From positions 1-28,112 of IMG/VR virus record IMGVR_UViG_3300031669_000186: a DNA stretch of 28,112 nt. One strand, 5' to 3'. The translations under genes and the position numbers were made by a program. Every line of letters begins with the position of its first letter. The first letter of the stretch is position 1. The DNA is from a virus. Under the pieces are notes generated by a model. The model was not told the DNA's origin. It saw only the letters and a program-made list of their open reading frames with translations, and did no database searches. Of the stretch, positions 3,830 to 28,112 are shown in pieces.

Positions 3830-3838
3830 GATGGCCCC

Positions 3839-5867: not shown

Positions 5868-6253
5868 GCGCCCTGTTTCACAATGGCTGCCTTCGTCCAG
5901 TCGGGCCAGCTTTCCAGCACCTTGACAACAAGCCAGGTGCCGCGCAAAGCTACGGGCGCGGGGGCGGCAATCGTTACCAAATCGCCGCCGGTTTGATTCG
6001 GGCGCACCACGCCGGCCAGGGTGCCGCACAAGTAGATTGCCCGGATGGTGCCTTGAATGTTGAGGCCGTCAAGCTGTTTGATATCGTCCGCGTCGAGGGC
6101 TTGAATTTGCGCCGGGCCGCTTACGGGGGCGGCGTAGCTGGGAACCTGCTTTGCCCCGGCGCCCGTGGTGAAACCCGTCGACCGCAAAACGGTAACGGTT
6201 TGATTCGGGTTGACGGTGGTGGTCACACCATTGGCGAGGCCGCGCAAGTCCAT
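5864..6253 (-). CDS. putative head-tail connector / neck protein
   Basis: This protein has 129 residues from the ATG at 6253. That ATG has GGAGG ten bases upstream and follows the preceding TGA by two bases; a TTG two codons earlier is less likely. The sequence has a glycine-rich N-terminus (MDLRGLANGVT), a strand-rich middle and the segment LDGLNIQGTIRAIYL. It ends VLESWPDWTKAAIVKQ. I recall similar unnamed proteins in Bcep-type myoviruses at the same place between the gp10-like protein and the tail terminator. Its size and position suggest a neck or head-closure component, but no domain is recognised with certainty. Confidence 0.55.
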   Translation of the reverse strand: MDLRGLANGVTTTVNPNQTVTVLRSTGFTTGAGAKQVPSYAAPVSGPAQIQALDADDIKQLDGLNIQGTIRAIYLCGTLAGVVRPNQTGGDLVTIAAPAPVALRGTWLVVKVLESWPDWTKAAIVKQGA

Positions 6254-6255
6254 GG

Positions 6256-6822: not shown

Positions 6823-7214
6823 GTCGTTGGCTGTGCCAGGTAACGGAAGCCGCGCAAGCTGCTTGTCGCCTGCCAGAAGGCGGCGCCATACTGCGATTGC
6901 TGGAACCATTGCGCGGAGCCCGGGGGCGGCCCTTCAAACGCGGCCGATACGCTACCTTCCCCAGCTTGCGAAAGGCGCCCAATGGGCCGCGGCATGCCGT
7001 CCGCGCTCAAGATGCCGCCAATATAGGCGATATGCGCGGTCAACATGTTCAAAAGCAGCGCCCGCCGTGTGACATTCTGCACGGGCGAATTATTCGCGTT
7101 GGATAGGTAAAGGCCCGCTTCCGTAAAGCAGGCCCCCAAGGTCAGGTCGGCAACCGCCGCAAACTCCGGATAGCGGGCCTTGAATGCTGCGGGGTCGAAG
7201 ATTACGGCGGGCAT
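6816..7214 (-). CDS. DUF4054-like head-tail adaptor
   Basis: This 132-residue protein starts MPAVIFDPAAFKARYPEFAAV, the usual opening of DUF4054 connector proteins. It continues with a helix (TLGACFTEAGLYLSN) and the helical segment RRALLLNMLTAHIAYI, which matches the family pattern of an 'LLTAH' helix. The C-terminus has GSAQWFQQSQYGAAFWQAT, also typical. These proteins form the adaptor ring under the portal. Five bases separate it from the 115-residue gene upstream, within the structural operon. Confidence 0.75.
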   Translation of the reverse strand: MPAVIFDPAAFKARYPEFAAVADLTLGACFTEAGLYLSNANNSPVQNVTRRALLLNMLTAHIAYIGGILSADGMPRPIGRLSQAGEGSVSAAFEGPPPGSAQWFQQSQYGAAFWQATSSLRGFRYLAQPTTW

Positions 7215-13818: not shown

Positions 13819-13847
13819 TTGACATAGATAAATTATTTACCTATACT
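13819..13847 (+). promoter_or_regulatory. sigma-70 promoter with palindromic operator in spacer (site 1)
   Basis: TTGACA, 17 bases, TATACT: near-consensus. The spacer and flanks (13824-13844) form an imperfect palindrome with half-sites ATAGATAAAT and ATTTACCTAT around a central T. The same element is built into the promoters at 19629-19657 and 20688-20716. It drives the 72-residue plus-strand gene. The operator is also 49-70 bp upstream of the portal ATG, so it could control that operon as well. Confidence 0.85.
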
Positions 13848-13880
13848 TCGTTCATCAACTCAACGAACCGGAGAAACAAA

Positions 13881-14099
13881 ATGACCAAGGCCCGCAAACT
13901 CTATCAAATTCGCATCCATACTTTCGGCCTCACGTTCGGAAAAACAGTCGGCCATAAGGCTCGCATTATTCCGCGCAACGCTGCTCAGCGTATTGCAAAG
14001 CGTCTACGCAAAAGCGGGCACGACGTTCAGTTGTTCCCGATGCTGGTTAATTTGACCGCAGAGCAATGCGCCTACCTCGATAATCGCTACTCAAAGTAA
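13881..14099 (+). CDS. moron-like small basic protein
   Basis: This 72-residue protein (MTKARKLYQIRIHTFGLTFG) is Lys/Arg-rich, with a helix AQRIAKRLRKSGHDVQLFP. GGAG lies 7 bases before the ATG, and a near-consensus promoter lies 34 bases upstream of it. It is the only plus-strand gene inside the virion block and ends 20 bases before the terminase stop on the opposite strand, separated by a perfect 7-bp hairpin. That layout (own promoter, own hairpin, inserted between terminase and portal) is the definition of a moron. The function is unknown; the basic character could suit DNA or protein binding. Confidence 0.8.
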   Translation: MTKARKLYQIRIHTFGLTFGKTVGHKARIIPRNAAQRIAKRLRKSGHDVQLFPMLVNLTAEQCAYLDNRYSK

Positions 14100-14103
14100 C
14101 CCC

Positions 14104-14121
14104 AGGCCCCGCAAGGGGCCT
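14104..14121. terminator. hairpin between convergent genes
   Basis: AGGCCCC-GCAA-GGGGCCT is a perfect 7-bp stem with a GNRA-like tetraloop. It lies at the convergent ends of the 72-residue gene and terminase large subunit. No T run follows on either strand, so termination would be weak or Rho-assisted. Confidence 0.55.
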
Positions 14122-15565
14122 AGCGCCCCATAGCCTTATCAAGTGCCGCTTGGCTAATCTTCAACTTGTTGAACAACGGATACAGCCGGCGCAATGCTTG
14201 GGTCAGGGCGTCGACTTGGTCATCATTGGCCGCCGCCGGGAATGCCGTCAACTCTCCGACAAGGTCTTTGACCCATGGGAAAAGGTCCGAATGCGGCAAC
14301 CACACATTGCCCGCTTCCCAATAGCTGGTAACGGCGTGCGCCCGCGCCAGCTTGGAGCCGTCCGGTTCAATGGGCAAGATGCCAGGCACCGACGCCTTTA
14401 GGGTGTCAATGACCGCCGGCCCGTTGGCCTTGTCTTCAATCAAAACTTCCTTTATTCGCGGGTGCGCTGTCCGCAACGCGACGACCTCTTTTACCGTCTT
14501 GGTGAAACTCATGCGGGCGCGGACCTGTGCCAGCAAGTAGGAATTGGCGCCAGCCTTTCCCCATACCTGGCCGACGACAAAGTCCGTGCCGTCCGTGTCC
14601 TTAAAGGTGCAATCCCAGGAAGCGATAACCTTGTCGAACTTGGCCGGCAAATCCTTGGGCAAGTAGTAGCGTATGCCGTCTTCCTTGAACACGTTGCCGC
14701 CCAAAGGCCGCGGGCATTGCTGATACATGGCCGCCCACCAGTAGTCGGAAAACAGGCCCTTGACCTCTTGCAAGAATGCCAGGCTCTTGAGTTCGGGGAC
14801 CAATGGCCCCTTGGGCAAGTTCGGGTTGTAGCCAACTTCCCCGGGCAGGTTGATTGCCGGGAAGCGCAAGACGGTAAGCCGAGGGTCGCCCTTGAAGTGG
14901 TTGCAAATGCGGGACGGCAAGTCGTCTTCCGCCCATGACGTTGCCATGATGATTTGCCCGGAGTTTTCCGATAGCCGCGTCGTGAATACTGATTGATACC
15001 AGTTCCAATGCCCTTCTTTGGTCGTGGGGCTCAAGGCTTCTTTTTCGTTCTTTACCGGGTCGTCAATGATGCCCACGTCGACCGGGCGTCCCGTGAGGCC
15101 GGATCCCACACCGACGCCGATATATCCGCCAGCGCCACCAGGCGCCGTAAATTCCCCGGTGCGGTTGACGTCATAGCGGCGCTTTTCGGCGGCCGTGGGG
15201 AACAAGCGGCGGTGTTCGTCCGACGCCAGGTTGCGCCGCACGTCTTGAGCCATGGCGCCGGCCAGGTCGTCGCCGTAGCTGGCCGCACCTACGCGCCAAT
15301 CAGGGAACCGGCCCAGGATATAGGCCGGAAGTTTGCGGCTCACAATCTCCGACTTGCCGTGCTGGGGCGGGGCCTGCAAAACCAGAATGGGTCGCTTGCC
15401 CGCTTGCATGTCATCAATGAACATGTCGAGGGCCGCGCAAACGGCGGCGCTAAAGCCGCTTGGCTTGTACTTCGGGGACGTGTAGCCGATATAGGCGGCC
15501 AGTTGCCGACGGGCTTCGCGGCGCCGCATCAGTTCGGCCGCCGCTTCACGCTTCGTCGGGAGCAT
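14120..15565 (-). CDS. terminase large subunit
   Basis: This 481-residue packaging motor and nuclease has an N-terminal ATPase with Walker A APPQHGKSE (65-73) and Walker B VGIIDDP, followed by the coupling segment IMATSWAEDDLPSRI. The C-terminal RNase H-like nuclease has its acidic residues in KVIASWDCTFKDTDGTDF, LIEDKANGPAVID and AANDDQVDALTQAL. The length is normal. It overlaps the small subunit by 20 bases and has AAGG upstream of the ATG at 15565. It pumps DNA through the portal and cuts concatemers. The packaging mode (cos or headful) cannot be read here. Confidence 0.95.
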   Translation of the reverse strand: MLPTKREAAAELMRRREARRQLAAYIGYTSPKYKPSGFSAAVCAALDMFIDDMQAGKRPILVLQAPPQHGKSEIVSRKLPAYILGRFPDWRVGAASYGDDLAGAMAQDVRRNLASDEHRRLFPTAAEKRRYDVNRTGEFTAPGGAGGYIGVGVGSGLTGRPVDVGIIDDPVKNEKEALSPTTKEGHWNWYQSVFTTRLSENSGQIIMATSWAEDDLPSRICNHFKGDPRLTVLRFPAINLPGEVGYNPNLPKGPLVPELKSLAFLQEVKGLFSDYWWAAMYQQCPRPLGGNVFKEDGIRYYLPKDLPAKFDKVIASWDCTFKDTDGTDFVVGQVWGKAGANSYLLAQVRARMSFTKTVKEVVALRTAHPRIKEVLIEDKANGPAVIDTLKASVPGILPIEPDGSKLARAHAVTSYWEAGNVWLPHSDLFPWVKDLVGELTAFPAAANDDQVDALTQALRRLYPLFNKLKISQAALDKAMGR

Positions 15566-16268
15566 TGTCAGCCTTGAGGATGGCCGCCAGTTGGTCGTCG
15601 CTCAGGTCGTCGGCGGACAGGTGAGCCAGCGCCAAGGGGCCGCCGCCGGGTCCGCTGATTTCCTTCCGGTCAATTTGCATACCCAGGTAACGCGAGAGAT
15701 TGAATAATGCAGCGTCCTTGTCCCGCATGTTGACCTTGATGCCGTTACGGGTCTGCTCTGCGCCAGCGTAAAGAGGATGCCGTTTAAGTTTGCGGGTGTC
15801 CGCGACATAGACTTGAGCAACACCGTCGCCGCCGCACTCGGGGCAATCAGGGGAGGGCTCTACTTGCGGGTCGAACCCGAAGCCGCCCATGCCGTCAGGG
15901 GCGGGCTTGCCGCCATCCACGGCCTTGTCGACCGCGACTGCATATTCAGCTTCGGCCCATTGGTATTGGTGCCCGTAGCCATAGCAATGCCTGCAGCAAG
16001 TACGGCGAACGTCGACCAGCTCATTGGGGTCGGCGAAGGCAATTTTACGCCATTCGGCTAACACCATTTCCGGCGTAATGCTAGCAGCGACGGCCACTTC
16101 CTCTTGTCTATCCCTGATCGCGGCCACAATTTCAGGCAATTTAAGTAAATTGTGAGCCGTTTGTCCCGCCCCGTTTTCCGAGTATCCAGCGCGAATGGCG
16201 GCCTGTGTTGCGTTTTCATCGACGCAATACTCGTTCACAAATCGGCGTTGTTTAGGTGTCAGGCTCAT
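15546..16268 (-). CDS. terminase small subunit with zinc-ribbon-like insert
   Basis: This 240-residue DNA-recognition subunit begins MSLTPKQRRFVNEYCVDENATQAAIRAGYSENGAGQ, the clear helix-turn-helix start of the terminase_2 family. After LAEWRKIAFADPNELVD comes an insert with CCRHCYGYGHQYQW and about 45 residues later CPECGGDGVAQVY. These two CxxC pairs look like a zinc ribbon. The C-terminus has NMRDKDAALFNLSRYLGMQ, which in this family contacts the large subunit. Its ATG overlaps the stop of the upstream zinc protein gene, so the three genes are one operon from the promoter at 16673-16700. Confidence 0.9.
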   Translation of the reverse strand: MSLTPKQRRFVNEYCVDENATQAAIRAGYSENGAGQTAHNLLKLPEIVAAIRDRQEEVAVAASITPEMVLAEWRKIAFADPNELVDVRRTCCRHCYGYGHQYQWAEAEYAVAVDKAVDGGKPAPDGMGGFGFDPQVEPSPDCPECGGDGVAQVYVADTRKLKRHPLYAGAEQTRNGIKVNMRDKDAALFNLSRYLGMQIDRKEISGPGGGPLALAHLSADDLSDDQLAAILKADNAPDEA

Positions 16269-16644
16269 GGTTTCGACAGTCTAACCCGTTCAATAAGCCA
16301 CGGCAAGAAACGCATGCGCCGGAAGAAACAAAACGCCATCCGACGTGACCATTGAAGCATGGTCGACCCGTTCGGTAAATCTTCAAGCCTAGCGCCTTGG
16401 CATCATTCCTTGATATTTCCATGTCGGGGAAACTTCGCGCCATGTTAAAGCTGGCCGACGTTCTCCGGTCGACCATGTCTTCCATAAGGACCGCGATAAC
16501 TTCGCGTGACGGCCACACCTTCCCTAGTAATTTGATATATCCGTGGGCAATTCTCGGCACTTTTCGACCGTTCGATTTCCACACAATCAGGTTATTTTTT
16601 AGCGCAAGTATTGCCTTGATGGCGTCTTTCTCATTGGCGTCCAC
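16252..16644 (-). CDS. small protein with C-terminal C-x3-H-x10-C-x2-C domain
   Basis: The GTG start at 16644 is chosen because AAAGGA lies 6-7 bases upstream and the -10 and -35 of a strong promoter occupy the longer frame. This gives 130 residues. The N-terminal part has HGYIKLLGKVWPSREVIAVL (helical). The C-terminal domain reads LGLKIYRTGRPC, then GH, then SGACVSC. Its C96, H100, C111 and C114 have exactly the same spacing as the plus-strand gene at 16971. I recall this type of putative zinc module at the N-terminus of phage endonuclease VII-like and HNH proteins. As the first gene of the terminase operon it may assist packaging, but this is inference. Confidence 0.75.
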   Translation of the reverse strand: MDANEKDAIKAILALKNNLIVWKSNGRKVPRIAHGYIKLLGKVWPSREVIAVLMEDMVDRRTSASFNMARSFPDMEISRNDAKALGLKIYRTGRPCFNGHVGWRFVSSGACVSCRGLLNGLDCRNHEPDT

Positions 16645-16672
16645 GTTCGTTCCTTTGGTATCTAACGCAATC

Positions 16673-16700
16673 ATTATAACTAGGTTCGACCTCAAGTCAA
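16673..16700 (-). promoter_or_regulatory. terminase operon promoter
   Basis: On the minus strand TTGACT (16700-16695), 16 bases, TATAAT (16678-16673). It precedes the GTG start at 16644 by about 29 bases. The tandem TACACCGT repeats directly abut its -35, suggesting activator or replication-protein binding there. Confidence 0.8.
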
Positions 16701-16701
16701 C

Positions 16702-16730
16702 ACGGTGTAACGGTGTATTTACGGGGTGTG
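16702..16730. repeat. tandem ACGGTGTA repeats, iteron-like
   Basis: ACGGTGTA occurs twice head-to-tail (16702-16717) with a degenerate third unit ACGGGGTGTG (16721-16730). Related GGGGTGT and TACACC words recur at 16803-16809 and 16880-16900. They lie in the AT-rich intergenic stretch 16701-16970 that separates divergent operons. Candidate iterons or activator sites. Confidence 0.6.
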
Positions 16731-16816
16731 TAAGCTAACTGCTTGTTTACATTACTTTATATTACTACTTACCTACTCTAACTTTAAAATATAACATCGC
16801 TGTACACCTAATGCTG

Positions 16817-16845
16817 CTTATAGATATAGATTTCTTATCTATAAT
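16817..16845 (+). promoter_or_regulatory. promoter with overlapping inverted repeat for the rightward operon
   Basis: TATAAT at 16840-16845 has a poor -35 (CTTATA, 16817-16822) 17 bases upstream. Nine-base arms TTATAGATA (16818-16826) and TATCTATAA (16836-16844) flank 9 bases and overlap both promoter elements, so a dimeric regulator bound here would block it. It lies about 125 bases before the ATG at 16971. A second possible -35, TTGACA at 16918-16923, lacks a good -10. Confidence 0.5.
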
Positions 16846-16970
16846 AGACGCTAGGTCGTAAAGGACTTGAATGCTGTTGGGGTGTCAGGTACGGGGTGAT
16901 ATTATCTTAAAAAGGCGTTGACAATTAACGTTACTTTAAGGAAACTGGCGGCTTTTGGAGGATATTTACC

Positions 16971-17414
16971 ATGGAAAGAGCCGAAGCGGTAAAACTTGGA
17001 CTTAAGAAGTACAACACGGGTCGACCTTGCAAGCACGGCCACAGCGTTGACCGTTATACCGATAGTGGCGCATGTTCCGCTTGCGTTAAGAACTTGGTCA
17101 CTGTTTCCGCTGGAAATTCGGCCGCCGTCCGGGCCAAAATTGAGCGGGCCACCAAGAAAATTTATTTGTTCTCGCAGCAATCTGGATTTGCCGCGGTAAA
17201 AACAGTGATCGACGGCCTTGTTGCTGCACGCTGCCCGGACCTTCCGGTTGACGTGGTTAATCCGTACCCGTTCGTCGGTAAGCAGGTGTCCCGACTTACC
17301 TATCAAATTTCAGTGCGCGTGCCATTAGAAGACGTCGACGCCGCTTACGCTATGGGTAAAGCCATGCTTGAGCCTGAGCCGGTTACTTTCCCCAAAATCA
17401 AAGAGGTCGGATAA
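16971..17414 (+). CDS. protein with N-terminal C-x3-H-x10-C-x2-C domain
   Basis: This 147-residue protein begins MERAEAVKLGLKKYNTGRPC and carries C20, H24, C35, C38 with the same spacing as the first gene of the divergent terminase operon. After the module comes an Ala/Lys helix (AAVRAKIERATKKIYLFSQQ), then GFAAVKTVIDGLVAARCPDL, ending with a strand-helix pair (YQISVRVPLEDVDAAYAMGKAML). GGAGG precedes the ATG. It overlaps the next gene by one base (TAATG). The C-terminal two-thirds is not recognised. A nucleic-acid-binding role is plausible from the zinc-like module. Confidence 0.75.
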   Translation: MERAEAVKLGLKKYNTGRPCKHGHSVDRYTDSGACSACVKNLVTVSAGNSAAVRAKIERATKKIYLFSQQSGFAAVKTVIDGLVAARCPDLPVDVVNPYPFVGKQVSRLTYQISVRVPLEDVDAAYAMGKAMLEPEPVTFPKIKEVG

Positions 17415-17659
17415 TGCAAAAAGTAACGGGAAGTACCTTTATCGGCGCAAGCCATTTGGCGGAAGTCTTTGCCGGCTTGTCCTTCAATCTTGAGAAAATG
17501 CGGGTCGTACTGCCCGACGGTCGCTTGCTTAATAGGGCGCGGTTCGACGTGTTGTATGGTGGCTACACCTACGTTTTAGACATTAACAACGAGCGCACTA
17601 CGCGGAGCGCCTGGCGGGCCTTTACTGCAAACGAGGCGTACCGACCGCCCATTGTCTAA
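17414..17659 (+). CDS. stand-alone copy of the primase-helicase linker domain
   Basis: This 81-residue protein aligns without gaps to residues 328-403 of the phage's own primase-helicase (22011-22238). About half of 76 positions are identical by eye. Shared motifs are VTG-TFIG, FAG, YGGYT, NE-TTR-AW-AFT and AYR. It has no catalytic motif. Its ATG overlaps the previous stop (TAATG), so it is co-translated with the zinc-module protein. A stand-alone copy of a replication-protein domain could compete for its partner or act as a mini-adaptor. The paralogy is seen in sequence; the role is inference. Confidence 0.85.
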   Translation: MQKVTGSTFIGASHLAEVFAGLSFNLEKMRVVLPDGRLLNRARFDVLYGGYTYVLDINNERTTRSAWRAFTANEAYRPPIV

Positions 17660-17663
17660 GTAG

Positions 17664-17682
17664 CCCTTGGCGGGGATCCGTG
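17664..17682. repeat. 19-bp direct repeat flanking the cassette block (copy 2 at 18791-18809)
   Basis: CCCTTGGCGGGG-A/C-TCCGTG occurs at 17664-17682 and 18791-18809 with one mismatch. Beyond the repeat, both sites share a diverged CTACTT...ACA.TGG.CGG on the minus strand. The two copies bracket the whole block with two minus-strand genes, consistent with insertion or duplication. Confidence 0.8.
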
Positions 17683-17710
17683 CAGCATCTAGGCCGCTTG
17701 TGTGGCCTTC

Positions 17711-17770
17711 ACGCCCTCAAGCCGCCTGGCGCGGCTTTATGCGACAGGCGGCTTGAGCGACGTGTTAGAG
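17711..17770 (-). other. attC-like recombination site / large hairpin
   Basis: Read on the minus strand: CTCTAAC (17770-17764), ACGTCG, CTCAAGCCGCCTG (17757-17745), a 16-base loop, CAGGCGGCTTGAG (17728-17716), GGC, GTGAAGG. The order R''-spacer-L''-hairpin-L'-spacer-R' and the words CAAGCC/GGCTT and RYYYAAC-like CTCTAAC match integron attC architecture. The R' box (GTGAAGG) departs from GTTRRRY. No T run follows on either strand, so it is not a standard intrinsic terminator, though it lies between convergent genes and could still stall polymerase. Confidence 0.45.
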
Positions 17771-17777
17771 GGCGGGA

Positions 17778-18191
17778 TTATTTTGAGGGTTTTTTGATAT
17801 GAGCAGCAGCGCGGCGGATACCAAGGGACAGATCACCATCGCCAAAAGCGCGGAGGGCGTCAGCGCTCTCCTGGTCGATGGTGATATTGGTGCGTTTGAG
17901 GCCGGTTGCGCCGTCCGCAGCCTTGACGCCTTGGCCGCGTCCGGCACCTCCACGACCGGTGCGCACCTCTTCAAGCGCCGCAACAACCTTGCGCTGCTCA
18001 AGCGACCGCAGCACGCCAGCGTTGATCTGGACATAGAGGCTGGTAGCCTCGATAAGCACCAGCGCGCCAGTGTCGCACTCGTCGCGGGTGATGGTTCCAA
18101 TAGCCCGGCTATTGGCCGGGATGGTGTTGGTGTATAGCCGCCACTTACCGCCAAGATCGACGGTAAGGCGGCCACGATTTGTGTGCGTCAT
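17778..18191 (-). CDS. unknown protein with C-terminal ribbon-helix-helix-like tail
   Basis: This 137-residue protein starts at the ATG at 18191 with AAGGAG nine bases upstream. The N-terminal half is strand-rich (GRLTVDLGGKWRLYTNTI, then TGALVLIEATSLYVQINAGVL). A Gly/Arg linker (RTGRGGAGRGQGVKAA) follows. The C-terminal 35 residues read NITIDQESADALRAFGDGDL, then SLGIRRAAAHI. This resembles the short tails found on phage and plasmid regulators, where a strand and two helices form a DNA-binding unit. It is the second gene of the block bounded by attC-like sequences. The regulator suggestion is tentative. Confidence 0.65.
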   Translation of the reverse strand: MTHTNRGRLTVDLGGKWRLYTNTIPANSRAIGTITRDECDTGALVLIEATSLYVQINAGVLRSLEQRKVVAALEEVRTGRGGAGRGQGVKAADGATGLKRTNITIDQESADALRAFGDGDLSLGIRRAAAHIKKPSK

Positions 18192-18203
18192 GGCCGCCGC
18201 TCC

Positions 18204-18473
18204 TTAGTCGATGTAGGTGTTTGCGAGGCGGGCGGCGCGGGCGGCATCCGCAAGACTTTTACGATACCCAACCACTTCCGGGCGGGCTGCGGTCAGGGCG
18301 TTCAGTTGGTCGTCGTAGACCTTGGCTTTTTTCCATGCGCTGGAGCCGGGAAACGCGCCGCCAGAATCGGACATTTCGAAAAGGCTGTTGTAGGCGTCAA
18401 GCAGTTGGTCGAGGGATGCGGTAGCAACATCAATTTCAACTTCGGTGTAGGTTTTTGTCGAGAGGTATTTCAT
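18204..18473 (-). CDS. small helical protein, function unknown
   Basis: This protein has 89 residues from the ATG at 18473 (MKYLSTKTYTEVEIDVATAS); GGAG lies 7 bases upstream, favouring it over a start four codons earlier. It contains LDQLLDAYNSLFEMSDSG and the helix SAWKKAKVYDDQLNALTAARPEV, and ends SLADAARAARLANTYID. It lies 12 bases before the 137-residue gene and shares the promoter at 18539-18566. No family is recognised. Confidence 0.65.
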   Translation of the reverse strand: MKYLSTKTYTEVEIDVATASLDQLLDAYNSLFEMSDSGGAFPGSSAWKKAKVYDDQLNALTAARPEVVGYRKSLADAARAARLANTYID

Positions 18474-18538
18474 GATTTTCTCCAACCCCTGATTACCCGA
18501 GGCGCGGTAGGTTTGCGTTTGTGCATCCCATGTATTGA

Positions 18539-18566
18539 ATTATACACACAAAACAAAATAAAGCAA
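18539..18566 (-). promoter_or_regulatory. promoter of the two-gene block
   Basis: On the minus strand TTGCTT (18566-18561), 16 bases, TATAAT (18544-18539). The surrounding DNA is AT-rich compared with its neighbours. It lies inside the attC-bounded block, 40 bases inward of the GTTAGAG boundary, so the block carries its own promoter. Confidence 0.7.
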
Positions 18567-18605
18567 GAACTTTTTACAAATATTTCCGAGGGCGCAGAAC
18601 AAGCC

Positions 18606-18640
18606 CTCTAACGCAGGTCAGGTCGAGCGCCGGGTTATGC
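18606..18640 (-). other. cassette boundary with truncated attC-like sequence
   Basis: On the minus strand GCATAAC (18640-18634), CCGGC, GCTCGACC, TGACCTGC, GTTAGAG (18612-18606). This resembles the R'' and L'' half of an attC joined directly to an R'-like GTTAGAG with no returning stem. The GTTAGAG is the exact complement of the CTCTAAC at the far end of the block (17770-17764), as expected for a cassette reading from 18612 to 17764. Confidence 0.4.
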
Positions 18641-18882
18641 GGCGCGAGACTACGGAGAAAGAAACGATAGACCAACTGACAAAGAGCGAGCGCAAGCAGA
18701 TTGCCGAAATACTCGACCGAAGGGCCAACGAGATTGCAGGATTCAGCGGCCATTATTCGCCCGCCAATGTCCTTCAAGTAGCCGCGGGATCCCTTGGCGG
18801 GGCTCCGTGTGGCCGCCAATGTCAAAGGTGCGTGTCGAAGCCGGTTTGCTCAGTGAAGAGGGCTGCCAGGCGGTCGCCGTAG
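18637..18882 (+). pseudogene. truncated phage gene fragment
   Basis: The open frame starts in the GTTATGC of the attC-like boundary. It reads LTKSERKQIAEILDRRANEIAGF, a strongly coding-like segment similar to small phage proteins I recall with 'ERRQIA..LERRANEIA'. After FSGHYSPAN the similarity ends at a copy of the ParB-like gene's 3' end. The frame then enters the pentapeptide gene antisense. No ribosome site is present. It is probably a remnant broken by recombination; it could be chance. Confidence 0.35.
18747..18780. repeat. degenerate copy of the ParB-like gene 3' end (source at 19770-19803)
   Basis: CGGCCATTATTCGCCCGCC is identical at 18747-18765 and 19785-19803, followed in both by a near-identical CTTCAAG. 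At 19785-19803 it covers the ParB-like stop codon and the start of the small membrane protein. The copy at 18747 has no gene attached. Confidence 0.8.
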
Positions 18883-19586
18883 ATCATTTCAAATTCCCCG
18901 CGTTCGGTCACAGTAGCCGGCCACGCGGCGTAATGGGCTTCCACTAGCACCAGGGCGGCCCGGTATTCGATCGCGTGGACGTTGTCGCCATGTTCCCCTT
19001 GGAGCTTGTCCCGGAACGCTTCCACGGTGCCAAAGAAGCGGCCAGCGCGAAGGAATACGCCCTTTTCCGTGAGGAACGCCGCTAGAACGTCTTGCCGCGA
19101 ACCAATTGGACCGACCGCGAAATACGGACGGTCGCCCGTCAGTTTACCCGCGTCCCCAAGGTTCGCGCTGCGAAGGTTCGCGTCCCCAAGGTTCGCGCTG
19201 CGAAGGTTCGCGTCCCCAAGGTTCGCGCTGCGAAGGTCCGCGCCGTAAAGGTTCGCGTCCCCAAGGTCCGCGCCGTAAAGGTTCGCGCTGCGAAGGTTCG
19301 CGTCCCCAAGGTTCGCGCTGCGAAGGTCCGCGCTGCGAAGGTCCGCGCAGCGAAGGTCCGCGCCGTAAAGGTCCGCGTCCCCAAGGTCCGCGCTGCGAAG
19401 GTTCGCGCTGCGAAGGTCCGCGCAGCGAAGGTTCGCGCAGCGAAGGTCCGCGCAGCGAAGGTTCGCGCAGCGAAGGTCCGCTTTCGCGTTTATCGCGGCG
19501 GCCAACGTAATTGCGACGCTGTTGTCTTCGCACTCGTGGCTAAAAAGCACTTCAAGCGAAAAACGACTTTTAATTTCAATCTTCAT
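18822..19586 (-). CDS. pentapeptide-repeat protein
   Basis: This protein has 254 residues from the ATG at 19586 (MKIEIKSRFSLEVLF). GGAGAGG lies eight bases upstream, and earlier in-frame codons would fall in the promoter. Residues 36-145 are 22 uninterrupted A(D/N)LXX pentapeptides using only RC, RS, GD and YG as variable pairs, so a right-handed quadrilateral beta-helix is expected. The C-terminal 110 residues contain GSRQDVLAAFLTEKGVFLRAG and ALVLVEAHYAAW, a domain often attached to such repeats in phages. Pentapeptide proteins can mimic DNA (Qnr-type) or act as scaffolds; which applies is unknown. It has its own operator-bearing promoter. Confidence 0.88.
   Translation of the reverse strand: MKIEIKSRFSLEVLFSHECEDNSVAITLAAAINAKADLRCANLRCADLRCANLRCADLRSANLRSADLGDADLYGADLRCADLRSADLRSANLGDANLRSANLYGADLGDANLYGADLRSANLGDANLRSANLGDANLRSANLGDAGKLTGDRPYFAVGPIGSRQDVLAAFLTEKGVFLRAGRFFGTVEAFRDKLQGEHGDNVHAIEYRAALVLVEAHYAAWPATVTERGEFEMIYGDRLAALFTEQTGFDTHL
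19152..19481 (-). repeat. 22 x 15-bp tandem array encoding pentapeptides
   Basis: Twenty-two 15-bp units (minus strand GCGAACCTTCGCAGC and three close variants) without interruption. The homogeneity at synonymous sites indicates recent expansion or gene conversion and makes the array length prone to change. Confidence 0.95.
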
Positions 19587-19628
19587 TTTATGTACCTCTC
19601 CAGGTGAATTAAGGATGCTACGGGACGA

Positions 19629-19657
19629 ACTATAGATAAATAATTTACCTATGTCGA
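19629..19657 (-). promoter_or_regulatory. promoter with palindromic operator in spacer (site 2)
   Basis: On the minus strand TCGACA (19657-19652), 17 bases, TATAGT (19634-19629). Palindrome at 19632-19652 with half-sites ATAGGTAAAT and ATTTATCTAT. It drives the pentapeptide gene; the ribosome site is about 25 bases downstream of the expected start point. Confidence 0.8.
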
Positions 19658-19665
19658 CGACTATT

Positions 19666-19791
19666 TTATTTCTCGACTTCAACCTTGATGCCCCAGCGGA
19701 AAACCGCGGCATACAGGGCGCCGGCCGCCAATAAAAGCGGCTTTGTCCACCAGCGGAATTTAACGCGCACGGTAATGGAAAGTTCGGCCAT
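19666..19791 (-). CDS. small membrane protein
   Basis: This 41-residue protein starts at an ATG overlapping the ParB-like stop (TAATG). It reads MAELSITVRVKFRWWTKPLL, then LAAGALYAAVFRWG, and ends IKVEVEK. There is one clear transmembrane segment (about 17-31) flanked by basic and aromatic residues. Small proteins with the same 'V.V..K..WW.KP' opening occur in many phages of Proteobacteria. It is translationally coupled to the ParB-like gene. The function is unknown. Confidence 0.75.
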   Translation of the reverse strand: MAELSITVRVKFRWWTKPLLLAAGALYAAVFRWGIKVEVEK

Positions 19792-20642
19792 TATTCGCCC
19801 GCCGGCATCTTCAAGCCGCCCAACAGTTCGACCAGTTCCTTGCGGAGTTTGGTGGACAAGTGGCCGAAGCCGGGGTCGTCCAACAGTTTGGTCAACGTGT
19901 TGTGCATGGGCTCCGCGGCCTTACGTAGTGCCTTTTTGAATTCGGCTTGCGGCATATGCTTGGCGGTAACGCGGCCGGTCCCCGACTTGACCATGGCGGC
20001 CAGCAACACATCGCCCGCCTTGTCCCCGTGCTTCTTGATGGCTTCAATAGCCGTCGTGGCCGATATGACCGACCCCACTACCATGCGGCGGACGGCCAGC
20101 GACGCCGATGCCAGGGACAGCAGCCCGTCGACGTACTGTGCCGTCGAGTAGCCCAGGCGGCGGGCGATCTCTTTGGAGTCCCAGCCGAAGGCGGCCAGGC
20201 GCTTGCAAACGACGGCTTGCTCATAGGTGGACAGGGGTTCGCCTTCGTTGCCCACAACGAGGTCGACGGTAAGGTCTTCCATGCTGGTGCCGCGGGGCTT
20301 GATTACCACGGGCACGGCGGGCACTTCCACGCCTTCCGAAAGGGCCAGCAATACCGCTTCATGCCGGCAGTGCCCGCCCGTGACGTAGATAACTTCCGTG
20401 CCGTCTTCCAGGGCCACGAAGCCGGTCAACGGCTTGTCCTTGTAATAGCCGTTTGCCTTGATGCTGTCAGCAATCCAGCGCACGCGGCCGGTGTACACCA
20501 CGTTCTTGATGCGGGCGTTAAAGCCGTCAAGGATGCGGAGCCGGGTCGGTTCCACTTGCCACAGGTCAGCACTCACGGCGCCGACGGCCTTCATGGCGGC
20601 CTTTGTGTTGCCGGGGGTTAATTCGCGGGTAAAGTCTTCCAT
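19791..20642 (-). CDS. ParB/Spo0J-like protein
   Basis: This 283-residue protein has a ParB-type N-terminal nuclease/CTPase-like domain (about 25-130). It shows RWIADSIKANGYYKDKPLTG (box I region) and VTGGHCRHEAVLLAL (box II, 88-102). A helix-turn-helix segment follows (SKEIARRLGYSTAQYVDGLL, about 156-175). The C-terminal helical part (HMPQAEFKKALRKAAEPMHN) is not recognised. No ParA is present, so a regulatory or DNA-organising role is more likely than partition. GGAGAGG lies close upstream of the ATG at 20642, similar to the pentapeptide leader. It is driven from the operator-bearing promoter at 20688-20716. Confidence 0.8.
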   Translation of the reverse strand: MEDFTRELTPGNTKAAMKAVGAVSADLWQVEPTRLRILDGFNARIKNVVYTGRVRWIADSIKANGYYKDKPLTGFVALEDGTEVIYVTGGHCRHEAVLLALSEGVEVPAVPVVIKPRGTSMEDLTVDLVVGNEGEPLSTYEQAVVCKRLAAFGWDSKEIARRLGYSTAQYVDGLLSLASASLAVRRMVVGSVISATTAIEAIKKHGDKAGDVLLAAMVKSGTGRVTAKHMPQAEFKKALRKAAEPMHNTLTKLLDDPGFGHLSTKLRKELVELLGGLKMPAGE

Positions 20643-20665
20643 TTGTCCACCTCTCCAAGTGATAG

Positions 20666-20908
20666 TTAAAAAGCAAATTCCGCTTGCATCTTAGGTAAAT
20701 AATTCACCTGTGTCAACGGGAAACAACGGTTATATTCTTCAAGGCAGTCGTCGCAAATCGGCTGGCCGCTCTTCGTTTCGTGGGGCTTCGACCGTATGAT
20801 TTTTGGCCGCAAGTCAAATGGGTATGGGGTTGGCGCTGTTGCATTACTCCGGCTCCTACGCGTGGACGGGTGCCAGGGGGAACGGCACGCGGCTATGATT
20901 GTTGGCAT
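20666..20908 (-). CDS. small CxxC protein overlapping the primase 3' end
   Basis: The coding-like part reads DLRPKIIRSKPHETKSGQPI, then CDDCLEEYNRCFPL and ends MQAEFAF. The cysteine pair CDDC and a third Cys suggest a small metal site. The start is uncertain: the ATG at 20908 gives 80 residues but overlaps the primase-helicase by 53 bases and has only a weak AAGG; no other good start is in frame. The promoter for the ParB-like operon is inside its last 17 codons. Unknown function. Confidence 0.5.
   Translation of the reverse strand: MPTIIAACRSPWHPSTRRSRSNATAPTPYPFDLRPKIIRSKPHETKSGQPICDDCLEEYNRCFPLTQVNYLPKMQAEFAF
20688..20716 (-). promoter_or_regulatory. promoter with palindromic operator in spacer (site 3)
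   Basis: On the minus strand TTGACA (20716-20711), 17 bases, TAAGAT (20693-20688). The spacer carries the half-sites AGGTGAAT and ATTTACCT. The promoter lies inside the 3' end of the 80-residue gene upstream and drives the ParB-like operon. Confidence 0.8.
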
Positions 20909-23383: not shown

Positions 23384-23686
23384 TCAGCCCGCCAGCGTAT
23401 TCAATGCGCGGATCTTCAATTCCGGGTCGGCTTTCTGCGCGTGCAGATCGCCATGAGCCAACCCTTGAGCGATAATGGAAAGATTTTCCGTTAGTACCGC
23501 CGACCGCATTATGGTTCTGCGAAAATTTACCATTGTGCCGAAATATTTAGAAATAAGGGCTTCGGCGCAACCGATTTCTTTAGCCACAGATTCACGAGTC
23601 AGTTTTGAAAATCCTCCTGGTCGTTCAGCGACACTGATGGCGGCGGTGAGGATTTGATACTTTCGGTCGTCGGGCTTTTTTCGCAT
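23384..23686 (-). CDS. TetR-like regulator, N-terminal DNA-binding domain only
   Basis: This 100-residue protein has a TetR-type helix-turn-helix: RKYQILTAAISVAER, then LTRESVAKEIGCAEALISKY and a helix FRRTIMRSAV. It lacks the long ligand-binding domain of ordinary TetR proteins (about 190 residues). I recall such short forms in phages of Burkholderiales and Pseudomonads. The palindrome TTGACG-CTTC-CGTCAA sits in its own promoter, so autoregulation is likely. Its stop is followed in frame by half an HNH nuclease. The ATG at 23686 has no good ribosome site. Confidence 0.8.
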   Translation of the reverse strand: MRKKPDDRKYQILTAAISVAERPGGFSKLTRESVAKEIGCAEALISKYFGTMVNFRRTIMRSAVLTENLSIIAQGLAHGDLHAQKADPELKIRALNTLAG

Positions 23687-23714: not shown

Positions 23715-23743
23715 ATTATGTAATCTATTGACGCTTCCGTCAA
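23715..23743 (-). promoter_or_regulatory. TetR-like promoter with palindromic operator (site A)
   Basis: On the minus strand the promoter is TTGACG (23743-23738), 17 bases, CATAAT (23720-23715). The palindrome TTGACG-CTTC-CGTCAA occupies 23728-23743 (plus strand) and includes the -35. The same palindrome recurs at 25575-25590 and, with one mismatch, at 27436-27451. Confidence 0.75.
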
Positions 23744-25543: not shown

Positions 25544-27298
25544 TTATTGATTATTTGCAAAGTATGCCTCGGCGTTGACGGTTCCGTCAATACCATATTT
25601 AGCAAGCTCCGCGGCCACACGCTCCGCAAGCTCCGACGACTCCTTGGCGTTGAGCGTTTGAGCGTTGGCAACGTCGACCCCGAAGCGATAATAAAAGCGG
25701 CGGTAACTTTCGGACTCCCCACGGCCTTGGGCATTCTCAAGACCCGCCCACCAGGCAATGACGTTCCGCAATGCCTTTTGGCCTTCGCGGCGTTCCCAAT
25801 GCCGACGACGGACAGCCCCGACGACTTCCGGGCCGGCGCCGTAGGGAATGACCGGGTCGCCGTCAATGCGGGCAATCTCCCCGCGCAAGGCGGCCAGCGT
25901 TTCCGCGTCAAGCTCCAACAGGTCGCCGTCGACAAACTCCGGGGCGCTTCGGCTTGGCGGGGGCGGGTAGTGGCCGCAATACGGGCAGCATTTGTAGACG
26001 CGCTCATAGGGTTGGATGCACTCCGGGTTGACGCAAACCCGCATTGGGATGGCGTCCGACTTGCCGCTGCTCCGGCGGTCCCGGCGGTCTAGCGACCATT
26101 CCTGTTGCGCGTCCGGGAGCCCGTGCCGGAGTACGTTGTTCACGTGGTCAATAATGAATGCGACGGGCTTATCGCTGGCCGCAATCGCCGCCCGCCGCTG
26201 TTCGTCCGTTATGTGGGCATGCACGGCCGCGGCTTCCTTGGATAGCATCAAGCGCAAGGCCCGCCCAAACTGCTGGCAGAATAGCGCGAAGGACTCCGTC
26301 GGCCTGGCGAAGCTCACGACCTCAATTGCTGGCAGGTCGAAGCCTTCCCCGAACAAATCCACGTTCACGAGTTGCAGCACCTCCCTAGCCTTGAAGCGCC
26401 GGAGAATTTGAGCCCGCAAGGCGTCCGGGGTCTTGGCGCTTACCACTTCCGCGGACACGCCGGCCGCACGGAACGCCGCGGCAATCTCGGTCGCCGCTTC
26501 CACGTCGACGGCAAAGGTAACGCCCAGCTTGCCCGGCGCCAACTTGAGATAGTGCGCCACCACGTCCCCGGTAATATGGGACTTGTGGACCGCCTTGCGT
26601 AGCTGGTCCGCGTTGTAATCCCCGGTCGCCTGGCTCAGTGCCACGGCCGATAGGTCAAGGTCGGACGGCGGCGCAAAAATGCGGTAATTCGTCAAATACC
26701 CCATGTTGATAATGTCCCGCATGGAAGGCGCCAATACCATTGCGTCGACCAGCCCGTCAGCATGCCGCCCCAGCCCCTTGCCGTCCGCCCGCCGCGGCGT
26801 GGCCGTTGGAAGTAGCGACCGGGCGTTGGGGAACATGCCGGCCGCAATGCCCCACTTGTTGGCCTTTAGGACGTGGTGCGCTTCATCTTGAACGACCAAG
26901 CGGGTTTGCATGAAGAAGGGGTCGGTCGGGTCCATGCGTATGACGGTATCAACCCCGCCGACGCCGGTCTTCGCGTTCGGGTCAAAGAACGAATAGCCAA
27001 GCTCCGCAACCTGTAGGGCGCTGATTATCCGTATCAGGTTCGACCCCTTCTTAGCACCAAGGATGCGATGCCGCACGCCGTTACGGGCCAGGGCGATAGA
27101 AATTTGGCTTACCAATTCTTGCCGGTGCGCGATGGCGATAGAGGCGCCCGGTTCATCATAAAGCACCTTTGATAGAAGGACGGTTTTACCGGAGCCCGTG
27201 GCCGCCACGGGCATTACGTTCAAAGCGCCAGCGTTCCAGGCTTCGTACACGCGGCGCTCAAGCTCGGCTTGGAAGGGGCGAAGTTCAACCGGCGGCAT
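25544..27298 (-). CDS. superfamily 2 DEAD/DEAH-box helicase with zinc ribbon
   Basis: This 584-residue helicase has Walker A ATGSGKT (33-39), motif Ia IAIAHRQELV, motif II DEAH (138-141), motif III LPTATPRR, and motif VI FCQQFGRALR (about 343-352). The central spacing is that of UvsW/SSL2-type phage helicases. A CVNPEC...CCPYCGH zinc ribbon (about 419-441) and a unique 150-residue C-terminus follow. The helicase probably remodels DNA in replication or recombination. GGAGG lies close upstream of the ATG at 27298. It overlaps the methyltransferase-tail ORF by 14 bases. Confidence 0.9.
   Translation of the reverse strand: MPPVELRPFQAELERRVYEAWNAGALNVMPVAATGSGKTVLLSKVLYDEPGASIAIAHRQELVSQISIALARNGVRHRILGAKKGSNLIRIISALQVAELGYSFFDPNAKTGVGGVDTVIRMDPTDPFFMQTRLVVQDEAHHVLKANKWGIAAGMFPNARSLLPTATPRRADGKGLGRHADGLVDAMVLAPSMRDIINMGYLTNYRIFAPPSDLDLSAVALSQATGDYNADQLRKAVHKSHITGDVVAHYLKLAPGKLGVTFAVDVEAATEIAAAFRAAGVSAEVVSAKTPDALRAQILRRFKAREVLQLVNVDLFGEGFDLPAIEVVSFARPTESFALFCQQFGRALRLMLSKEAAAVHAHITDEQRRAAIAASDKPVAFIIDHVNNVLRHGLPDAQQEWSLDRRDRRSSGKSDAIPMRVCVNPECIQPYERVYKCCPYCGHYPPPPSRSAPEFVDGDLLELDAETLAALRGEIARIDGDPVIPYGAGPEVVGAVRRRHWERREGQKALRNVIAWWAGLENAQGRGESESYRRFYYRFGVDVANAQTLNAKESSELAERVAAELAKYGIDGTVNAEAYFANNQ
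25561..25590 (-). promoter_or_regulatory. candidate TetR-type operator with internal promoter (site B)
   Basis: The 16-bp palindrome TTGACGGTTCCGTCAA (25575-25590, 7-bp arms) lies in the last codons of the helicase gene. On the minus strand TTGACG (25590-25585), 18 bases, CATACT (25566-25561) could start transcription of the tiny ORF, methyltransferase and nuclease. The codons here encode GIDGTVN, so the palindrome could be accidental. Confidence 0.5.
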
Positions 27299-27435: not shown

Positions 27436-27479
27436 TTGACGGTAGCGTCATTATCGGCAACAATGGCAACTCTCGTCAA
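27436..27479. promoter_or_regulatory. divergent promoter region with TetR-type operator (site C)
   Basis: The palindrome-like TTGACGGTAGCGTCAT (27436-27451) contains the -35 of a rightward promoter (TTGACG, 17 bases, AACAAT at 27459-27464). On the minus strand TTGACG (27479-27474), 18 bases, GATAAT (27455-27450) could drive the helicase operon. The operator overlaps its -10 by two bases, so one protein could control both directions. Confidence 0.65.
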
Positions 27480-27500: not shown

Positions 27501-28112
27501 ATGTCCATGCAAATCAGCGTCGACCCTGCAGCCCTCTCGCAAGAACAGCGCGAAGCGGTAGCCGGTTTCATTCTCGCTTACCCCGCCAAGGCTTGCGCCG
27601 GAACGTGCGGCAACCATGCCGTCGCGGAGATTCACGCTCACACGCACGCGGCGCCGGTAGCTGCTACTACTGCCCCGGTCGTCGATGAATTGGCGGTGTT
27701 GCAACACGACCACGAAAGCACCTTGCCGGAAAGCGCCTTTGGCAAACCGGACGAAGCTGCCGCGGCCTTCGGAGTGCCCCCCGCCCCTTTGCCCCTTGGG
27801 ACGACCGCTGCCCCCTCTATTGCGGTTGCCGCTCCGTCCTTGACTGCCCCCGCGGTTATGCCGGCAACTACTTTGACCGCGACGTCGACCGTCCCCGCAC
27901 CCCCTGCACCGACGCCCGCGAACGCGGCGCCGATTGCTGCACCCCCTCCCGGGAGCCCTGTCGGCGGCGTTGAGTTGGACAAACGCGGCTTACCGTGGGA
28001 TAACCGGATTCACGCCGGCACCAAGCGCAAGAACGCGGACGGTTCGTGGACGGCCAAGCGTGGCGTCGACCCGGCGCTGGTTGCCACTGTTGAAGCAGAA
28101 TTGCGCCAAGTC
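27501..28112 (+). CDS. Pro/Ala-rich protein with conserved phage C-terminal motif, truncated at window end
   Basis: This is at least 204 residues with AGGAG nine bases before the ATG. The first 55 residues contain CAGTCGNHAVAEIHAHTHA, a Cys/His cluster that could bind metal. A long Ala/Pro/Thr linker (about 60-155) follows. Then comes ELDKRGLPWDNRIHAGTKRK, NADGSWTAKRGVDPALVATV and EAELRQV. That last block is a phage motif I recall in proteins of unknown function near recombination genes. The gene begins the rightward operon and is controlled by the site C region. The stop codon lies beyond the window. Confidence 0.75.
   Translation, partial: MSMQISVDPAALSQEQREAVAGFILAYPAKACAGTCGNHAVAEIHAHTHAAPVAATTAPVVDELAVLQHDHESTLPESAFGKPDEAAAAFGVPPAPLPLGTTAAPSIAVAAPSLTAPAVMPATTLTATSTVPAPPAPTPANAAPIAAPPPGSPVGGVELDKRGLPWDNRIHAGTKRKNADGSWTAKRGVDPALVATVEAELRQV

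What the first reader, a model, noticed from the sequence alone, without database searches (positions are those of the whole stretch)
13819..20716. One palindromic operator built into the -35/-10 spacer of three separate promoters
At 13819-13847 (+), 19629-19657 (-) and 20688-20716 (-), near-consensus promoters with exactly 17-base spacers carry a shared palindrome (ATAGRTAAAT / ATTTACCTAT) between or across the boxes. The genes controlled are a moron, a pentapeptide protein and a ParB-like operon. This is the signature of a phage repressor or master switch whose gene is not in the window. Expression of these genes from a silent prophage, or early only, would depend on it.
Basis: seen in the sequence. 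Interest (0 to 1): 0.75.

Follow-up and report, generated by a model that had tools for sequence, protein, structure and literature searches.

The report
Dispersed operator regulon of uncultivated phage
An uncultivated bacterial virus carries the same mirror-image DNA switch inside several of its gene promoters, and its relatives carry it too, most likely so that one tiny virus-made regulator (probably a 55-residue protein) can turn many accessory genes down together.

Summary
Three promoters (13819 +, 19657 -, 20716 -) have 17-base spacers filled by one palindrome, TAGRTAAATWATTTAYCTA ("class A"); none is expected in shuffled sequence. In IMG/VR, 59 of 64 exact copies lie between -35 and -10 boxes. 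Relatives of at least 40 kb carry about 2-6 such promoters. It is a dispersed phage operator.

A regulator gene IS in the window: a TetR_N-like protein (23384-23686 -). It tracks a different palindrome, TTGACGN4CGTCAA ("class B"), found upstream of 26 of 28 TetR homologues of >=49% identity.

The best class A candidate is a 55-aa helix-turn-helix protein ("HTH55") encoded outside the window. A class A promoter precedes it in 27 of 31 loci (0 of 620 shuffles). In two divergent relatives (G006, G330) the palindrome and HTH55's recognition helix both changed while class B did not. Repeated spacer palindromes occur in 9 of 11 long HTH55 records and 0 of 18 long TetR phages without HTH55.

No integrase, resolvase or rve transposase was found in 10 phage records, so "silent prophage" is unsupported; early-gene shut-off fits better. 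No binding has been shown.

The parts
13819..13847 (+). class A operator-promoter 1: TTGACA, 17-base spacer TAGATAAATTATTTACC, TATACT
13881..14099 (+). 72-aa ORFan ('moron') between portal and TerL genes, opposite to the structural genes; GGAG upstream of the ATG; no Pfam or PHROG match
   Evidence: no tblastn match in the 20 relatives
19629..19657 (-). class A operator-promoter 2: TCGACA, spacer TAGGTAAATTATTTATC, TATAGT
18822..19598 (-). pentapeptide-repeat protein under class A promoter 2 (ATG at 19586)
20688..20716 (-). class A operator-promoter 3: TTGACA, spacer CAGGTGAATTATTTACC, TAAGAT (weakest copy, 7 of 9 pairs)
19791..20642 (-). ParB-like protein (PHROG 1033) under class A promoter 3; no match in relatives G001 and G011, so not the general class A reader
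23384..23686 (-). 100-aa TetR_N-like regulator (PHROG 8723), DNA-binding domain only; inferred reader of class B, not of class A
23727..23743 (-). class B palindrome TTGACGGAAGCGTCAAT = -35 and start of spacer of the TetR gene's own promoter (TTGACG-17-CATAAT)
27436..27452 (+). class B palindrome TTGACGGTAGCGTCATT at the -35 of the rightward promoter (TTGACG-17-AACAAT) between the divergent helicase gene and the 27501 gene
27501..28112 (+). first gene (open at window end) of the rightward operon that in relatives leads to the exonuclease (PHROG 69) and the Gp2.5-like ssDNA-binding protein (PHROG 7011); under class B
25575..25590 (.). class B palindrome inside the 3' end of the helicase gene (codes IDGTVN); conserved in many relatives; operator or coding constraint unresolved

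Best explanation
TAGRTAAATWATTTAYCTA is a dispersed operator of a phage-encoded repressor. A dimer bound to it would cover the spacer and the edges of both promoter boxes and so keep RNA polymerase off. The operator is built into strong sigma-70-type promoters that fire early and drive accessory genes (ORFans, pentapeptide, ParB-like) and, in relatives, the DNA-polymerase region and the operon of a 55-aa HTH protein (HTH55). HTH55 is the most likely repressor. It is made from such a promoter of its own, usually with a less perfect palindrome, so it would accumulate and shut the class A regulon, and last its own gene, off again. A second regulator, the TetR_N-like protein in this window, would in parallel control the replication/recombination promoters and its own gene through class B (TTGACGN4CGTCAA). 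Shown by sequence: the palindrome, its exact place in the promoters, its conservation, co-occurrence with HTH55, two separate operator classes, and two relatives in which operator and HTH55 differ together. Inferred: binding, repression rather than activation, timing, and the pairings HTH55-class A and TetR-class B.
For: (1) 59 of 64 exact class A copies in IMG/VR (window and near-identical contigs included) are framed by -35/-10 boxes (score <=3; the 4 with score 3 have the -35 one base further off), against 1 of 34 in GTDB genomes, a chance-like hit. (2) The 6 relatives fetched by TetR alone all carry class A within 3 mismatches. (3) 73 distinct class A contexts: the 17 spacer positions carry 1.51 bits on average (inflated, as sites were chosen by similarity); TAG(A/G)TAAAT is the commonest half-site on both sides, 54 and 50 of 73. 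(4) Of 249 promoter-like sites in 26 clade records 51 have spacer palindromes of 7-9 pairs (not every one is class A), against 1 of 379 in shuffles. (5) HTH55 is in 10 of 10 class A records of >=40 kb and is preceded on the same strand by a class A promoter in 27 of 31 loci, 0 of 620 shuffles (<=8 of 29 mismatches; some loci near-identical); 3 of the 4 misses have under 1.1 kb upstream. (6) HTH55-operon copies are less symmetric: 7.40 vs 8.03 of 9, p=0.004, n=20 and 35. (7) Two divergent relatives. G006: operator TATGTAAATAATTGACATA / TAGGTAAATAATTGCCATA, helix LTRSAIYM -> ISTSAIYM, class B unchanged. G330 (portal 23%, TetR 50%): no class A, but a tandem double HTH55 (helices LTVSAITR / VSESTINR) and three promoters TTGCAA-17-TATTCT/TAATCT whose spacers hold TAGTCGNNTWANNCGACYA; the copy nearest upstream of the HTH55 gene is again the least symmetric; class B unchanged. 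(8) Scan for any repeated spacer palindrome, no class A consensus used: 9 of 11 HTH55 records of >=38 kb, 0 of 18 TetR phages of that length without HTH55 (Fisher p=5.5e-6; ignores relatedness, length cut chosen afterwards). (9) HTH55 models as an HTH domain, pLDDT 88.
Against: No binding, transcription or expression data exist. HTH55 matches HTH families only weakly (Pfam HTH_3 E 0.0096, below cut-off; Foldseek best E 0.18), and 55 aa leave little room for a dimerisation surface. It was picked from an ORF list by eye; not every ORF was scanned for DNA-binding domains. G019/L180 has a changed recognition helix (LTAASIYM) with a standard class A site. G006's TetR helix also differs slightly (CVPALISRYF for CAEALISKYF), and its TetR gene lacks an upstream class B site. 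G325 (32 kb) has class A but no HTH55 match (possibly a fragment). L164 has no class A within 3 kb upstream. In the strict scan G321 and G326 failed: G326's copies have 18-base spacers, G321's are imperfect. A zinc-ribbon-like 99-aa protein shares the operon, also in G330. The window itself has no HTH55, so its presence in this phage is inferred from G001.
Confidence: 0.68

Rival explanations
1. The TetR_N-like protein in the window reads class A (alone, or both classes), or TetR and HTH55 cross-repress each other like a toggle.
For: In one search, 11 of 17 records have TetR; the 6 without it are 5 virus records of 25.5 kb or less and a bacterial genome. TetR-family operators are palindromes of this size (recalled).
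Against: Class B stands mostly 41-63 bp before TetR and follows it across phages. 18 long TetR phages without HTH55 have no repeated spacer palindrome. In G006 and G330 the spacer palindrome changed while class B did not. G322 (33 kb) has HTH55 and a class A site without a TetR match (possibly a fragment).
Confidence: 0.08
2. A different phage protein reads class A, for example the 99-aa zinc-ribbon-like protein encoded next to HTH55, or a gene missed by ORF calling.
For: The 99-aa protein is also found in 6 of 6 other records of at least 40 kb, lies downstream of the same class A promoter, and is next to the tandem HTH55 in G330.
Against: It matches no DNA-binding family and is less conserved (42-57%) than HTH55 (57-93%).
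Confidence: 0.12
3. A host regulator reads class A and ties these phage genes to host physiology.
For: Phage promoters are near-consensus for host RNA polymerase; phages can borrow host operators (general knowledge).
Against: Apart from one chance-like hit, class A with a TTGAC box was seen in GTDB only in an integrated phage-like element of one Azonexus assembly; 1 of 297 genomes of that family, that assembly itself, matches. The phage's host is not established.
Confidence: 0.03
4. No regulator: the palindrome is a by-product of copying one successful terminator-promoter cassette by recombination, kept because the spacer makes a strong promoter or a recombination hotspot.
For: Some copies share a hairpin-TTTTT terminator just upstream and a leader CATCAACTCAACG, so cassettes have been copied.
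Against: Flanks differ between copies while both half-sites stay, the same half-site in both orientations; G006 and G330 have different but still near-palindromic versions at the same place; promoter strength does not need a palindrome.
Confidence: 0.06

Closest known systems
SP-beta MrpR / SPBRE regulon (Bacillus prophage)
   Same: One repeated element at many phage promoters, found first in silico, bound by one phage master repressor (PMC10516654, abstract and passages seen).
   Different: MrpR is recombinase-derived and maintains lysogeny; SPBRE is a 15-bp motif. Here the element is a 19-21-bp palindrome in the -35/-10 spacer, the candidate reader is a 55-aa HTH protein, and no lysogeny genes were found.
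RK2 plasmid KorA and its operators O_A
   Same: Small HTH global repressor with seven palindromic operators of graded strength (PMC4889941, passages seen). KorA-operator complexes are among the weak Foldseek hits of HTH55. RK2's co-repressor KorB is ParB-like (recalled) and a ParB-like gene is in this regulon.
   Different: KorA is 101 aa with a separate dimerisation domain and a 12-bp operator of unrelated sequence. No homology was shown.
Mycobacteriophage stoperators
   Same: Repressor-binding sites spread across a phage genome (PMC9283540, search listing and start of abstract only).
   Different: Stoperators are asymmetric and also stop elongation; class A copies are palindromic and lie inside promoters.
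P22 Mnt operator (recalled)
   Same: Recalled as a 21-bp palindrome with ATAGGT/ACCTAT ends, like class A.
   Different: Mnt is a ribbon-helix-helix protein. The only RHH-like ORF seen by eye (17778-18191) matched only the window and G001 among 21 records.
Morons of lambdoid phages (recalled; search listing only)
   Same: Accessory gene with its own promoter and terminator inserted among structural genes.
   Different: Here many different such genes share one operator, so they form a regulon instead of each being autonomous.

Membership tests
Dispersed phage master-repressor regulon (SP-beta MrpR kind; P1 C1 recalled) | one operator sequence at several promoters of the same phage | tested here: met
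   about 2-6 class A promoters per record of at least 40 kb
Dispersed phage master-repressor regulon (SP-beta MrpR kind; P1 C1 recalled) | phage-encoded protein shown to bind it | not testable with these tools
   candidate HTH55 by co-occurrence and co-variation only
Dispersed phage master-repressor regulon (SP-beta MrpR kind; P1 C1 recalled) | keeps a prophage silent | tested here: inconclusive
   integrase, resolvase and rve families in 0 of 10 phage records, so a temperate life is not supported; records may be incomplete
KorA-like global repressor (for HTH55) | helix-turn-helix DNA-binding domain | tested here: inconclusive
   model pLDDT 88; Foldseek KorA 5clv best E 0.57; Pfam HTH_3 E 0.0096, below cut-off
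KorA-like global repressor (for HTH55) | separate C-terminal dimerisation domain, about 100 aa | tested here: not met
   55 aa in all, one extra helix 41-53
TetR family (window protein 23384-23686) | TetR_N profile above Pfam cut-off | tested here: not met
   17.8 bits against a cut-off of 24
TetR family (window protein 23384-23686) | TetR-type HTH fold | tested here: met
   model pLDDT 90; the 50 listed Foldseek hits are TetR-family by title or recall, but best E 0.015 and none at or below 0.001
TetR family (window protein 23384-23686) | C-terminal ligand-binding domain | tested here: not met
   protein is only 100 aa
Mycobacteriophage stoperator | asymmetric sites, many outside promoters | tested here: not met
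   palindromic, 59 of 64 exact viral copies framed by promoter boxes

The most novel reading that the evidence does not exclude
A portable terminator-operator-promoter cassette lets this phage clade plug ever-changing ORFan genes into one regulon run by a minimal 55-aa repressor (in one distant relative a tandem, single-chain version with its own operator). The operator has also been taken up by an integrated satellite-like element of Azonexus (integrase, AlpA-like gene, the phage's baseplate-hub homologue, a distant primase) that uses class A and class B-like sites to sense or exploit the phage.
Probability: 0.2. Interest if true: 0.72.

Novelty: new variant of a known kind. Interest (0 to 1): 0.55.

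Why it matters
It gives a testable regulatory plan for an uncultivated clade of tailed phages (contractile-tail genes such as a sheath in the window) for which I found no experimental data: two small regulators, two operator classes, and the genes each would control. It suggests how a probably lytic phage can acquire accessory genes without losing timing control, since any gene inserted behind the cassette joins the regulon. The operator patterns can assign metagenomic fragments to this clade, and the 39 ORF families found behind class A promoters are a list of candidate early host-interaction genes. Natural HTH55/operator pairs (standard, G006, G330) make a ready specificity-swap experiment.

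Tried and rejected
TetR as the class A reader was the first idea (note). It was set aside when a second palindrome was found at TetR's own promoter and tracked TetR across phages. ParB-like as a KorB-like reader: rejected, no match in G001 and G011. The RHH-like ORF 17778-18191: rejected, only in the window and G001. Host operator: rejected on GTDB scans.

De novo palindrome clusters in distant TetR phages (part's output was cut) gave no general class A analogue; Shewanella phage SFCi1 has three copies of its own motif. Class B before TetR in 13 distant named phages is clear only in JD001 (10/10) and CP-T1 (9/10). Scuro, SppYZU01 and phiPLPE scored 8/10, within chance (the start used for Scuro was wrong; a site before its annotated start was seen by eye); the other 8 scored 7/10 or less. 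A scan for more G006-type operators found only G006 and one single copy in G320. could not show absence of HTH55 (10-kb flanks rarely reach it), so whole records were searched. My working label 'SSB(2815)' was not borne out by Pfam; PHROGs names it Gp2.5-like ssDNA binding.

Paper searches: 68, 75, 101 and 113 returned no paper; 67, 97, 102 and 112 were seen as listings and abstract starts only, as was 74; 97 led to PMC4889941 and 98 to PMC10516654, of which passages were read. None of what I saw describes this operator, in the PMC library held only. RNA-family searches were not done.


Full report
WHAT WAS CHECKED. The three promoters are as described: TTGACA-17-TATACT at 13819 (+), TCGACA-17-TATAGT at 19657 (-) and TTGACA-17-TAAGAT at 20716 (-), each with the spacer filled by a palindrome on a T/A centre. 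The 19-mer with up to 3 mismatches is found at these three places only and in none of 100 shuffles. Palindromic spacers of this quality do not arise by chance: 379 promoter-like sites in 100 Markov shuffles gave one with 7 of 9 pairs and none with more, whereas the window copies have 8, 8 and 7. A fourth window site with 7 pairs (18028) is unrelated in sequence. The downstream genes are an ORFan of 72 aa, a pentapeptide-repeat protein and a ParB-like protein.

WHERE IT COMES FROM. The window is a 28,112-base IMG/VR virus record with contractile-tail phage genes (terminase, portal, major capsid protein, sheath). Its large terminase is closest to those of Proteus phage RS51pmB, Stenotrophomonas phage B2 and Xanthomonas and Burkholderia (Bcep781) phages, all below 60% identity. 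G001 (45,082 bases) is the nearest relative fetched: identical TetR, primase 99%.

THE OPERATOR IS DISPERSED AND BELONGS TO PHAGES. An exact scan for TAGRTAAATWATTTAYCTA gave 43 stretches in IMG/VR and 34 in GTDB genomes. Of 64 viral copies (window and near-identical contigs included), 59 are framed by -35 and -10 boxes (4 of these with the -35 one base further off); of 34 GTDB copies, one reaches the same threshold and looks like chance. All 8 first relatives have copies within 3 mismatches; two of them (L010, L011) were fetched by the pattern, the other six by TetR alone. In 26 records, 51 of 249 promoter-like sites have spacer palindromes of 7-9 pairs. Some records are near-duplicates (for example G002, G003 and G004; window and G001), so counts are not independent.

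WHAT IT CONTROLS. 59 distinct sites (<=6 of 29 mismatches) precede 39 ORF families, taken mechanically as the first ORF of at least 40 aa with an RBS-like motif; some may be spurious and one site had none. In the first member of 35 of the 39 families the start codon lies 25-45 bases after the -10. They include pentapeptide proteins (8 sites in one family), ParB-like proteins, ORFs before the DNA-polymerase gene (PHROG 1252), small ORFans before TerS, ORFans between TerL and portal on the opposite strand, and the HTH55 operon. At 11 of the 59 sites a GC-rich hairpin with a T-run lies directly upstream, so part of the regulon consists of terminator-operator-promoter cassettes. G001 lacks the ParB gene but has its class A promoter (24873), while the window has the gene: cassette contents turn over under a constant switch.

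A SECOND OPERATOR AND ITS REGULATOR. The window holds a TetR_N-like protein (23384-23686; Pfam 17.8 bits, below the cut-off of 24; PHROG 8723 at 2e-27) whose model (pLDDT 90) matches TetR-family structures (best E 0.015). Its own promoter carries a different palindrome, TTGACGGAAGCGTCAA, at the -35. This class B palindrome, TTGACGN4CGTCAA with a variable centre, stands upstream of TetR in 14 of 15 clade records, 3 of 3 further ones, and 26 of 28 IMG/VR homologues of at least 49% identity (11 with 10/10, 12 with 9/10, 3 with 8/10), but only 1 of 7 at 44% or below. The sets overlap. Chance in a 200-base window was 0.09-0.21 for 8/10, 0.03-0.07 for 9/10 and 0.01-0.04 for 10/10. Class B also marks the promoter of the Gp2.5-like ssDNA-binding gene (PHROG 7011) and the divergent helicase/exonuclease region. 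Exceptions: G006 and L224 lack it before TetR. Whole-record searches of 15 TetR records found HTH55 in 2 (G326, G330) and class A in 2 (G325, G326), so TetR and class B (for example G335) occur without class A or HTH55.

THE CANDIDATE CLASS A REGULATOR. Comparing G001 with six other records of at least 40 kb left, by eye, one further universal DNA-binding candidate, a 55-aa HTH protein at G001:10956-11123 (HTH55; 57-93% identity). G320, G321 and G326 also have it, making 10 of 10 class A records of at least 40 kb. It matches HTH_3 only weakly (E 0.0096; among 10 records searched for HTH_3 it is the only weak match, in 6, none above cut-off), and models as an HTH domain (pLDDT 88; weak Foldseek hits to sigma region 4, DeoR, KorA and ArdK DNA-binding domains). 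In 27 of 31 HTH55 loci a class A promoter lies upstream on the same strand, 0 of 620 shuffles; three of the four misses (L162, L165, L168) have under 1.1 kb upstream, and L164 is a true miss within 3 kb. These copies are less symmetric than the others (p=0.004).

TWO NATURAL CO-VARIATIONS. In G006 the palindrome is TATGTAAATAATTGACATA or TAGGTAAATAATTGCCATA and the HTH55 recognition helix ISTSAIYM instead of LTRSAIYM, while class B is unchanged. In G330, a distant relative (primase 59%, TetR 50%, portal 23%), there is no class A but a 98-aa tandem double HTH55 at 4263-4559 (-), and three promoters TTGCAA-17-TATTCT/TAATCT (29180 -, 33400 -, and about 6235 -) hold TAGTCGNNTWANNCGACYA in the spacer; the last copy, about 1.6 kb upstream of the tandem gene on its strand, is the least symmetric (6 against 7 of 9). 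Its class B sites are standard, with five perfect palindromes. A scan for any repeated spacer palindrome, without the class A consensus, was positive in 9 of 11 HTH55 records of at least 38 kb (misses: G321, G326) and in 0 of 18 TetR phages of that length without HTH55 (5 IMG/VR, 13 named); Fisher p=5.5e-6, ignoring relatedness and with a length cut chosen afterwards. Against it: G019/L180 has an altered helix with a standard class A copy; G325 (32 kb) has class A without an HTH55 match; G006's TetR helix differs slightly as well; and a 99-aa zinc-ribbon-like protein co-occurs equally, in G330 too.

MECHANISM. Near-consensus sigma-70-type boxes with 17-base spacing need no activator, and a protein on a palindrome that fills the spacer would block polymerase, so repression is the likeliest action (inference). 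Because HTH55 lies behind a class A promoter and integrase, resolvase and rve families match 0 of 10 phage records, I favour early expression followed by self-limited shut-off over lysogenic silencing (inference). Shown by sequence: operator, location, regulon, association, co-variation. Not shown: binding, direction of control, timing.

HOST LEAD AND SATELLITE LEAD. The only GTDB class A copy preceded by a TTGAC box is in an Azonexus assembly, inside an integrated element with a tyrosine integrase (3104-4366), an AlpA-like gene (just below the Pfam cut-off), a baseplate-hub homologue 56% identical to the phage's (6154-7050), class A at 7047 with a weak -10, a class B-like site at 7224 (9/10), and a primase homologue (38%). 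1 of 297 genomes of that family, this one, matches. This points to Azonexus-like hosts and to a possible satellite, but neither is established.

COMPARISON. It works like other dispersed-operator regulons: SP-beta MrpR/SPBRE (PMC10516654, abstract and passages) and plasmid KorA (PMC4889941, passages). It is not shown to be homologous to either. What I saw of the paper searches (mostly listings or empty) did not describe this operator. I rate it a new variant of a known kind.

Noticed in passing
L188 3104-11034 (contig CALJZP010000188.1, Azonexus assembly): Integrated satellite-like element: integrase, AlpA-like gene, phage baseplate-hub homologue, class A operator-promoter at 7047 followed by a short stretch without an evident gene and a hairpin-T terminator (by eye), class B-like site at 7224, distant primase homologue.
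   Followed up: partly
L233 4263-4559 (-), G330: 98-aa protein made of two HTH55 domains in tandem, as if a dimer in one chain; G330's spacer palindromes have a different half-site (TAGTCG..).
   Followed up: partly
window 25575-25590: Class B palindrome inside the helicase gene's 3' end (codes IDGTVN), unchanged in many relatives and followed by a possible -10; may be a further operator or only coding constraint.
   Followed up: partly
window 17414-17659: 81-aa ORF whose best match in 13 relatives (42-51%) lies inside the primase gene, apparently a partial duplicate of the primase.
   Followed up: no
L031 24417, 37636, 38252 (Shewanella phage SFCi1): Three copies of TAGTGTTACGTAACTATA, a near-palindrome that may be this phage's own repeated operator.
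   Followed up: no
L047 6141-8286 (G006): Four tandem class A-variant promoters, each followed by a different small ORF, in a stretch with portal (start 6064, -) and TerL (start 10536, -) on the other strand: a row of regulated accessory cassettes.
   Followed up: partly
window 17778-18191: 137-aa ORF with a ribbon-helix-helix-like C-terminus (by eye; no Pfam match), found only in this window and G001 among 21 records.
   Followed up: partly
L030 29581-29859 (Klebsiella phage JD001): TetR-like genes occur in 95 phage records, 65 named Klebsiella; JD001 has a class B palindrome TTGACCACCCCGTCAA just upstream.
   Followed up: partly
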